Shown: positions 9,247 through 33,059 of the stretch, in pieces
How the letters are laid out: every line of letters starts with the position of its first letter
How positions within the stretch are numbered: position 1 is the first letter of the stretch
Source: an archaeon 13_2_20CM_2_53_6
GTDB taxonomy: Archaea; Thermoproteota; Bathyarchaeia; 40CM-2-53-6
Length of the DNA stretch: 33,059 bases
Assembly: GCA_001915065.1 (NCBI GenBank)
Contig: MNDT01000053.1
Location: 1-33,059, forward strand
Direction: 5' to 3'
Position numbers and translations under genes: made by a program
The notes under the pieces: generated by a model
What the model was told of the DNA's origin: nothing
Seen by the model: only the letters and a program-made list of their open reading frames with translations
Database searches by the model: none

Positions 9247-10752
9247 TTGTCAGAAGACCCAACCTCGACTACAAAATTGTTCATAAAATCATACATGACA
9301 CTAGTCGGTGCTTTCACTCTCCTGTTGCTCGCGGTAGCTCCCGTCTATGCCGCGCCGCCGTTGAGTCTGGGCTCCTCGGCCTCCTACAATCTGACGGGAA
9401 AGATCCAAGTCAGCCAGAGTTGCACTTCCGATCCGGCAATTTACACACCCCAGGCCTGCGCACCCCCCTCAACGGGTAATCCCACCCTGGCGAACGTCAC
9501 AATCATGGACGACGGTAGCTGCTCATCCAGCGGGGACCCAGCTTGTAGCTTCAGCCCAATGTTCGCCCCTGTATCGCAAGGAGGCATGGTAGTCTGGACG
9601 AATCTGGGGACACTTCAGCATGATGTAAAATCCAACGCTACAGCCAACATCGGTCTTCCCAACTTCTCAGGCAACATCACAAGCGGGGGCAGCCTCCGAG
9701 TAAGCTTCCTGCAACCGGGCGTCTACCAGTACTACGACCTAGCCTACAGTTGGATGAGAGGAACGATAGTCGTTACTCCCGCTGCCTCTGCTCCAGTGGT
9801 CCCGCCCTTGCCAAGTTCGTTCCAAGTAGACCTGGGCGGAAATCTTGGGTGGAATGTAGTGGGTTTGAGCACCAGTCAGGGCAACCTCAACGTCTCTCAC
9901 CAGATCAGCCTGTCCGTGTCGCCCCTCCCCGGAATCAGCTTCACTCCGGTCACAGAATCGGGTAGCTACGAACAGTCCATCAATCTGTCGACACGCGCAG
10001 AGTCACCAAGCACAGCGACTGGCATAGTCGAGTCTTTCTCGACCTCATTAGCCTCAGCACTGGCTGGAGCCACATTCGCGACTGGCGTCACTAGCCCGGT
10101 ATTTCAGAGTACGCTCTTAGCCTCCAATACCCCAGACTATACCACGTGGTGGGTCAACGCACCCTTGTCCCTCGGAAGCCCAGTCCAGATACTGCACGGT
10201 TGGAGTAGCGTCACGGGTAGTGAGAGCTTGAACCTCCCCGGGAGCATCGGGACGAGGTCGGCCTGGATCGTCACAAGCCAACTCTTTCAGTCTATCAACA
10301 TAAGCATACCCGACCCGAGCAATCCGCTCAGCTCTACCACTTCCACAGCGGCCGTGATCCTCAAGCTCCTCTGGAGCTATGACAAGAGCACGGGCCTGCT
10401 ACTCCGCAACGATAATGCGGCCAGTCTGACGACGCACAGCGTGGCCCAAACGACCATCGGCACGATTACAGGTCCAGTCCCAGTTACAGTAACTCGGGAC
10501 ATGGCTCTGACAATCGACATTGCTCTCCGTCTCTCAACGACCAGCCTTAGCCTGCCCAAGTCCCCATCACGGACATCAACTCTCATGGGTCTGCTGTCCG
10601 CCATGCCATGGGTGCCGCTTGGAATAGCGGGACTAGCCGCTGGCGTCGCTGCGGCTCTAATCGTCTGGTTCACTCGAAGAGCCAAGGGAGCGACGCTGCC
10701 CGGGTCCGCCCCAGCCACAGCCCCGATACCTTCTCCAACAACGCCTTCCTAG
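9247..10752 (+). CDS. Surface-anchored cupredoxin-like protein with degenerate copper site
   Basis: Signal peptide (FTLLLLAVAPVYAAPP), cupredoxin-like block WTNLGTLQHDVKSN...PGVYQYYDLAYSWMRGTIVV, Ser/Thr-rich stalk, C-terminal TM (LGIAGLAAGVAAALIVWFTRRAK). Confidence 0.75.
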   Translation: MSEDPTSTTKLFIKSYMTLVGAFTLLLLAVAPVYAAPPLSLGSSASYNLTGKIQVSQSCTSDPAIYTPQACAPPSTGNPTLANVTIMDDGSCSSSGDPACSFSPMFAPVSQGGMVVWTNLGTLQHDVKSNATANIGLPNFSGNITSGGSLRVSFLQPGVYQYYDLAYSWMRGTIVVTPAASAPVVPPLPSSFQVDLGGNLGWNVVGLSTSQGNLNVSHQISLSVSPLPGISFTPVTESGSYEQSINLSTRAESPSTATGIVESFSTSLASALAGATFATGVTSPVFQSTLLASNTPDYTTWWVNAPLSLGSPVQILHGWSSVTGSESLNLPGSIGTRSAWIVTSQLFQSINISIPDPSNPLSSTTSTAAVILKLLWSYDKSTGLLLRNDNAASLTTHSVAQTTIGTITGPVPVTVTRDMALTIDIALRLSTTSLSLPKSPSRTSTLMGLLSAMPWVPLGIAGLAAGVAAALIVWFTRRAKGATLPGSAPATAPIPSPTTPS

Positions 10753-29623: not shown

Positions 29624-29773
29624 GAGAATTGGGCTGAAACGATTGACAAATGCTGACAGTTTTTACCTGACACTGGTTCTTGTCGATTAGCCTCAAACAA
29701 CCGACTGGTCTGTGAAAGATAATGATCTTTTCTTGAACCCTCCAGTCACTCACCATCATGACGTAGACGTGAA

Positions 29774-30352
29774 TTGAAGGAAACTCCTGCCAGCAGGTGT
29801 GAGTGGGCGACCTACAGCAACAGTCCGCTCATGATTCACTACCATGATAAGGAATGGGGAGTCCCGGTGCATAACGACAGAATCTTGTTCGAGTTCCTTA
29901 CACTGGAGGGGGCTCAAGCAGGACTCAATTGGCAAACCATTCTCAACAAACGTGAGAACTATCGCAAAGCTTTCCACGCCTTCGACCCCGCGAAGATCGC
30001 GCGCTACAACAAGAAGGATGTCCAACGACTCCTCCATGACTCTGGCATCATACGCAACCGTCTCAAAATCGAGGCGACTATCACAAACGCTAAACAATTC
30101 CTGGAGACGCGGAAAGAATTCGGTTCTTTCGATGGTTACATGTGGCGATTTGTCGGCGGTAGGCCGATCAGGAACGCGGCCAAATCGCTCAGTGAGATTC
30201 CTTCGACTACTAGAGAATCCGATGCTATGAGTAAAGAGCTGCGTAAAAGAGGCTTCAGGTTCGTCGGCCCGACTATCTGCTACGCGTTCATGCAGGCAGT
30301 TGGAATGGTAAACGACCACACTACGAAATGCTTCAGATACAACAGAGTATAG
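29774..30352 (+). CDS. tag: DNA-3-methyladenine glycosylase I
   Basis: YHDKEWGVPVHNDRILFEFLTLEGAQAGLNWQTILNKRENYRKAFHAFDP; GFRFVGPTICYAFMQAVGMVNDH; TTG start. Confidence 0.92.
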   Translation: MKETPASRCEWATYSNSPLMIHYHDKEWGVPVHNDRILFEFLTLEGAQAGLNWQTILNKRENYRKAFHAFDPAKIARYNKKDVQRLLHDSGIIRNRLKIEATITNAKQFLETRKEFGSFDGYMWRFVGGRPIRNAAKSLSEIPSTTRESDAMSKELRKRGFRFVGPTICYAFMQAVGMVNDHTTKCFRYNRV

Positions 30353-30561
30353 CCGGAGGCTTCGAATCCCTTTCCCGAGTCTTGTGAAGTCCACGCACTC
30401 ACGGGTCATGAGACTTGTCTTGATGAATGGATCCTGCTGACGAAAGCCGAGGAAAGATGGTAGCATTGCTCCATTCCGTCGATCTCCTCCCAGCATCTCA
30501 GGTCCGTAACGGCGTTCGAGCATACTACAAGTCTTATAATACGGAATGCTAACGGCGCATC

Positions 30562-32302: not shown

Positions 32303-32640
32303 GATGGGTGGCGTGTCGGCCGTAACCCACCTTCTGTTCGTAGCAGCATCTGTCTAATCGGGGAACCCGCGCCTCCGGCGGAGGATCACAGGCGTCTACA
32401 TCCCCTTTCACAGCGCAGCAGGAGCCCGTTTCATCCCGCGTCCAGCCCTCCATCAGGGACGCCCGGGAGAACATCCCATCATCGTCACACGGTACCGGCC
32501 GGGTATCGTTTCTGCGCTCCCACACAGGCTCTCGCCAGACACGTTACGTGTTACGCTTCCGCCATGTGGGTGGAGTTTCCTCAGAACAACGCCGTGTTAT
32601 CGACGCTGTTCTGCGACTGCTCACCGACTCGCCACCCAAA
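32303..32640 (-). ncRNA. rnpB: RNase P RNA, archaeal type A-like
   Basis: Read on minus: GAGGAAACTCC (CR-I), GGATGAAACGG, GGTTCCCCGATTAGACAGATG, ACAGAAGGTGGGTTA (CR-V). P1: TGGGTGGCGAGTCGG (32624-32638) pairs with CCGACACGCCACCCA (32305-32319), one mismatch. P3: CAGAACAGCGTCG/CGGCGTTGTTCTG. P4: AAC(T)CCACC/GGTGGGTT with single bulged T. Confidence 0.9.
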
Positions 32641-32771
32641 CCGGAAAACACGAGACCTGCTAATAGACTGATCAGAACAAGCACACAGAATAATCATGAG
32701 AGATGCCGTGTAGATTCCGCCTCAGACGTTGATATCGCTCCGAACGTGGGCTCCACCAGGGACCAGCACCT

Positions 32772-33059
32772 TGGGCGATTGGGGATCGCGGGCTGAACGT
32801 CTCGACCGAAGTCTCGACGCGTACACCCCGATTCCATCAACCCCATCTTCTGTGGGAGCCCTCGTCCAGTCCGAACACGCTGTCGCCAGCGTGCCAAGTG
32901 GACCGGAATGGTTGCCTATTTTCGGGAGAGGTTTCAGGCTTAGATGCTTTCAGCCCTTATCCTCGATAGCGTGGCGGCCCGGCAGTGCCCTGTCGGACAA
33001 CCGGTAAACTAGAGGCTACGATACCCCGTTCCTCTCGTACTAGGGGCGCCTTCCCCTCA
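32772..33059 (-). rRNA. 23S rRNA, 3' end (continues beyond window)
   Basis: Minus strand reads CTAGTACGAGAGGAACGGGG (sarcin-ricin loop) then ACCGGTTGTC...GGGCTGAAAGCATCTAAGCCTGAAACC...GGGGTGTACGCGTCGAGACTTCGGTCGAGACGTTCAGCCCGCG. Exact 3' end approximate. Confidence 0.95.

What the first reader, a model, noticed from the sequence alone, without database searches (positions are those of the whole stretch)
32303..32771. RNase P RNA gene directly downstream of 23S rRNA on the same strand
The 3' end of 23S is followed after roughly 130 nt by a foldable RNase P RNA in the same orientation, in the place where a 5S or tRNA gene is often found. This suggests possible co-transcription of two ribozyme-class RNAs. 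The P1, P3 and P4 pairings were found by hand in this sequence. The linkage being unusual is my inference.
Basis: partly seen in the sequence, partly recalled or inferred. Interest (0 to 1): 0.62.

Follow-up and report, generated by a model that had tools for sequence, protein, structure and literature searches.

The report
RNase P RNA gene behind 23S rRNA
In an uncultivated soil archaeon the gene for the catalytic RNA of RNase P really does sit about 126 bases behind the 23S ribosomal RNA gene; this order is rare among archaea in general but is the normal layout in this organism's own order, and whether the two are made as one transcript remains undecided.

Summary
Window 32311-32632 (-) is a complete archaeal RNase P RNA (RF00373, 139.5 bits) and 32759-33059 (-) is the 3' end of an archaeal 23S rRNA, 126 bp apart. 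The genome is a bathyarchaeial soil MAG with one rnpB and no detected 5S; relatives keep 5S on other contigs. The linkage is typical of the clade: 21 of 23 testable genomes of the order have 23S then rnpB on the same strand within 500 bp, and a 22nd has them 1.4 kb apart. An exact-pattern scan hit only 7 of 398 genomes of the phylum, six of them from this order. The spacer holds the 3' arm of a bulge-helix-bulge-like 23S processing stem, then a short leader. In most linked families outside the window's genus a BRE/TATA-like box sits where unlinked bathyarchaeial rnpB genes have theirs, so a separate rnpB promoter is likely there. In the window's genus no box is statistically detectable, although the same genus has clear boxes at 5S. 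Read-through from 23S is therefore possible but unproven. Verdict: a real, mostly ordinary gene in a conserved gene order that I did not find described; transcription could not be tested.

The parts
32759..33059 (-). 3' end of archaeal 23S rRNA gene (rest lies beyond the contig end)
   Evidence: RF02540, 231.3 bits, model 2732-2987
32703..32758 (-). 3' arm of the 23S processing stem (bulge-helix-bulge-like); the 5' arm lies outside the window
   Evidence: Aligns with the arm that pairs with the 23S upstream flank in relatives; in the window itself inferred by homology
32660..32676 (-). Candidate promoter island TCTGATCAGTCTATTAG; TATA-like CTATTAG at 32660-32666, about 25 nt before the P1 5' end
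   Evidence: Kept next to rnpB in L001, L017, L018 and L019 although L017-L019 have different inserts upstream; not significant by matrix score. Role inferred
32305..32638 (-). RNase P RNA gene (rnpB) including a 6-bp extension of P1; Rfam model covers 32311-32632
   Evidence: RF00373, 139.5 bits, full length; covarying pairs

Best explanation
A genuine, single-copy archaeal RNase P RNA gene that follows 23S rRNA as part of a gene order conserved in one order of Bathyarchaeia. The 23S precursor is presumably excised through the processing stem whose 3' arm fills the first part of the spacer (stem shown in relatives; cleavage inferred). rnpB is most likely transcribed mainly from its own promoter in the rest of the spacer: supported in most linked sister families, weak and only inferred in the window's genus. 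Some read-through from 23S is possible. The linkage need have no functional consequence.
For: Full-length RF00373 match, single copy. Linkage in 21 of 23 testable genomes of the order. Nine linked loci of sister families have their best BRE/TATA match at -42 to -46, the place used by unlinked rnpB genes. In the window's clade a short island stays next to rnpB although different DNA, two pieces with open frames, is inserted between 23S and rnpB; two of these spacers have T7 runs after the stem arm.
Against: In the window's genus no box reaches significance in the window or its nearest congeners, although 5S genes of the genus have clear boxes. In seven congeners (L020-L026) only about 35 nt separate the stem arm from P1. 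The island rests on four sequences. No RNA data.
Confidence: 0.6

Rival explanations
1. rnpB is expressed by read-through as the last gene of the rRNA transcript in this genus; excision of 23S at the processing stem by the splicing endonuclease frees the rnpB precursor, which is then trimmed. RNase P output would follow rRNA output.
For: Same strand, short spacer, no detectable promoter box in the genus, very short leader after the stem arm in seven congeners, detectable boxes at 5S of the same genus.
Against: Box at the expected place in most linked sister families; in L018 and L019 sequence with an open frame and T7 runs lies between the genes; absence of a motif match is weak evidence.
Confidence: 0.33
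2. A degenerate second copy of rnpB, the working copy being elsewhere.
For: The score (139 bits) is lower than in many other Bathyarchaeia (up to 231), and the MAG is only 80% complete.
Against: Only copy found; congeners score alike (128-146); conserved blocks such as GAGGAAACTCC, GATGAAACG and ACAGAAGG are intact and pairs covary.
Confidence: 0.03
3. Misassembly joined 23S to an unrelated rnpB contig.
For: The window lies at a contig end in a MAG, and rRNA genes often break assemblies.
Against: The same junction with a homologous spacer occurs in many independent assemblies.
Confidence: 0.01

Closest known systems
Archaeal RNase P RNA (Rfam RF00373)
   Same: Full-length model match, conserved blocks and helices
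   Different: Lower score in this genus (128-146 bits); variable P3; P1 longer than the model by 4-6 bp
Archaeal 23S processing stem with bulge-helix-bulge, cut by the splicing endonuclease (PMC12918454)
   Same: Flanks of 23S pair in a long helix with bulges on both strands in relatives
   Different: The 3' arm is followed directly by rnpB instead of 5S, tRNA or nothing
23S-rnpB linkage in a Methanomethylicota MAG (L127/L165) and a 'Thermococci' MAG (L120)
   Same: 23S then rnpB, same strand, spacers of 125 and 70 bp
   Different: Isolated cases: 1 of 40 genomes searched in the Methanomethylicota class. Common origin or independent gain not resolved

Membership tests
Archaeal RNase P RNA (RF00373) | Covariance model match above the curated cut-off over the full length | tested here: met
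   139.5 vs 84 bits, model 1-288
Archaeal RNase P RNA (RF00373) | Conserved core and helices kept by covariation | tested here: met
   22 of 56 pairs with both-side changes in 21 sequences
Archaeal RNase P RNA (RF00373) | Catalytic cleavage of pre-tRNA with its proteins | not testable with these tools
   Needs a biochemical assay
Archaeal 23S rRNA (RF02540) | Covariance model match of the 3' end | tested here: met
   231.3 bits, model 2732-2987
Bulge-helix-bulge 23S processing stem | Flanks of 23S pair with bulges on both strands | tested here: met
   Met in relatives with whole 23S; the window lacks the 5' flank, so inferred there
rRNA operon member (co-transcribed gene) | No own promoter | tested here: inconclusive
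   Box in most linked sister families, none significant in the window's genus
rRNA operon member (co-transcribed gene) | Continuous transcript with 23S | not testable with these tools

The most novel reading that the evidence does not exclude
In the window's soil bathyarchaeial genus rnpB has lost its own promoter after becoming linked and is now an rRNA-operon gene. Its 5' side would derive from the cut that excises 23S, so RNase P output is set by rRNA transcription.
Probability: 0.3. Interest if true: 0.6.

Novelty: new variant of a known kind. Interest (0 to 1): 0.33.

Why it matters
Both genes are known. New, as far as the searched papers show, is that one order of Bathyarchaeia keeps them next to each other, with a promoter-like box present in most sister families and undetectable in the soil genus. 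That offers a natural series for asking how an independently transcribed catalytic RNA could become an rRNA-operon gene. Practically, the linkage helps to find rnpB in fragmented MAGs.

Tried and rejected
A 23S blast against plasmids only returned distant rRNA. I first suspected a Thermoplasmata or haloarchaeal origin; the named relatives are Bathyarchaeota MAGs. The Lysobacterales hit of the collection scan is 23S followed by 5S, a chance pattern match. The G034 RNase P hit (72.5 bits, below cut-off, bacterial-looking) was left out as likely contamination, and G016 because its rnpB is cut by the contig end. tRNA upstreams as a second promoter control gave only three genes. A search centred on L120 was not possible. 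Paper searches for 23S-rnpB linkage in archaea found nothing relevant.

Full report
OBSERVATION. cmscan places a complete archaeal RNase P RNA at 32311-32632 (-) and the last 301 bases held of an archaeal 23S rRNA at 32759-33059 (-); nothing else in the 33-kb window matches Rfam at the gathering cut-off. The spacer is 126 bp. P1 extends 6 bp beyond the model, with T-A, C-G and G-C alternatives across relatives. The window is contig C41 of a 1.79-Mb, 80%-complete assembly with one rnpB. ARAGORN finds no tRNA in the window.

WHOSE GENOME. The class is therefore taken to be Bathyarchaeia; that the source is soil is my reading of those sample names.

HOW COMMON IS THE LINKAGE. Among relatives with an archaeal rnpB and enough upstream sequence, 21 of 23 in the window's order have 23S on the same strand within 500 bp: 11 of 11 in the window's genus plus ten in families f2-f5. 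Spacers are mostly 80-130 bp; three congeners (L017-L019) have about 310-480 bp. The two exceptions are G025, where 23S lies 1.4 kb upstream on the same strand, and G019 of the window's family, where rnpB lies 4.3 kb from a 16S gene and points away from it. Two more families of the class (f7, f8) are linked. One genome each of f9 (G160, two loci) and f12 (G050, spacer 275 bp) is linked too, whereas G040 of f9 has them on different contigs, and G046 of f12 has rnpB divergent from 23S at 303 bp. None of the 30 further rnpB loci fetched from the class has 23S in the upstream sequence held, up to 1.5 kb. An exact pattern for 23S followed by the rnpB core at the right distance hits 7 of 398 genomes spread over the phylum, six in the window's order and one in another class. 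The pattern is strict and misses the window itself, so this is a lower bound. In the named collection it hits 11 places, ten with archaeal titles; of the five checked with Rfam, four are real 23S-rnpB pairs (one Thermococci-labelled, one Methanomethylicota, two Bathyarchaeota) and one bacterial hit is chance.

5S. None was found in the window's incomplete genome. 32 of 41 genomes searched have a 5S, always on another contig than 23S where both were located. So rnpB does not replace a 5S at this place.

ANATOMY OF THE SPACER. In relatives with whole 23S, the upstream flank pairs with the first 40-60 nt after 23S in a long helix with 3-nt bulges on both strands, and both arms differ together between species (L037, with little downstream sequence, is weaker; the far ends of the printed duplexes are not meaningful). 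G040, whose rnpB is unlinked, has the stem too, so it belongs to 23S. Window 32703-32758 aligns with this 3' arm. Archaeal 23S is excised by the splicing endonuclease at such motifs and circularized; the paper's survey includes Bathyarchaeia (PMC12918454).

PROMOTER TEST. A matrix learnt from 30 unlinked or loosely linked bathyarchaeial rnpB genes gives CAAAACATTTATT starting 37-48 nt before the model start. In linked loci of f2-f5 and f7, nine have their best match at -42 to -46 with scores 4.7 to 9.4 and shuffle p from below 0.001 to 0.07; L009 and L013 have none, and L029 (f8) has one at -57. In the window's genus the scores there are -5.1 to 3.6. As a control, the 5S genes of the same genus carry GAGAAGGCTTATC-like boxes at -40 to -45, scores 4.7 to 9.3, p at most 0.03. 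A matrix from those boxes plus three tRNA boxes finds no significant site before rnpB in the window or its three nearest congeners (p 0.16 to 0.7); two of the others reach p 0.03-0.05, inside the stem arm. The only hint is the island TCTGAWYAGYCTA shared by L001, L017, L018 and L019 right before rnpB although L017-L019 carry different inserts upstream of it, two with an open frame; L018 and L019 also have T7 runs after the stem arm. Its TATA-like part would lie about 25 nt before the P1 5' end (by eye).

INTERPRETATION. Shown: both genes, their order, its conservation in the order, the processing stem in relatives, and the box in most linked sister families. Inferred: a separate rnpB transcript as the main route, and the promoter role of the island. 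Not excluded: read-through in the window's genus. The matrices are small and the sequences related, so the p-values are only a guide. No transcript evidence could be obtained, and 'not found described' means only that the searched open-access library returned nothing.

Noticed in passing
L158 (G039:C6:90000-100288): Two different rnpB genes on one contig flank the rRNA genes: rnpB - 16S - 23S - rnpB, all on one strand (L158 7927-8205, 6173-7672, 2955-6019, 2531-2851); both score over 190 bits.
   Followed up: partly
L163 and L164 (G160): One genome bin has two 23S loci, each followed by its own rnpB; two rRNA loci or a mixed bin.
   Followed up: no
L042, L038, L041, L037: 23S genes 3.8-4.8 kb long against about 3.07 kb in others, suggesting 23S introns or inserts.
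   Followed up: no
L018 and L019, between 23S and rnpB: Unrelated inserts of roughly 350 bp, each with a short same-strand open frame (about 110 aa in L019).
   Followed up: partly
window 9247-10752 (+) and 29756-30523 (-): Long open frames (501 and 255 aa) without a Pfam match at E 0.001.
   Followed up: no
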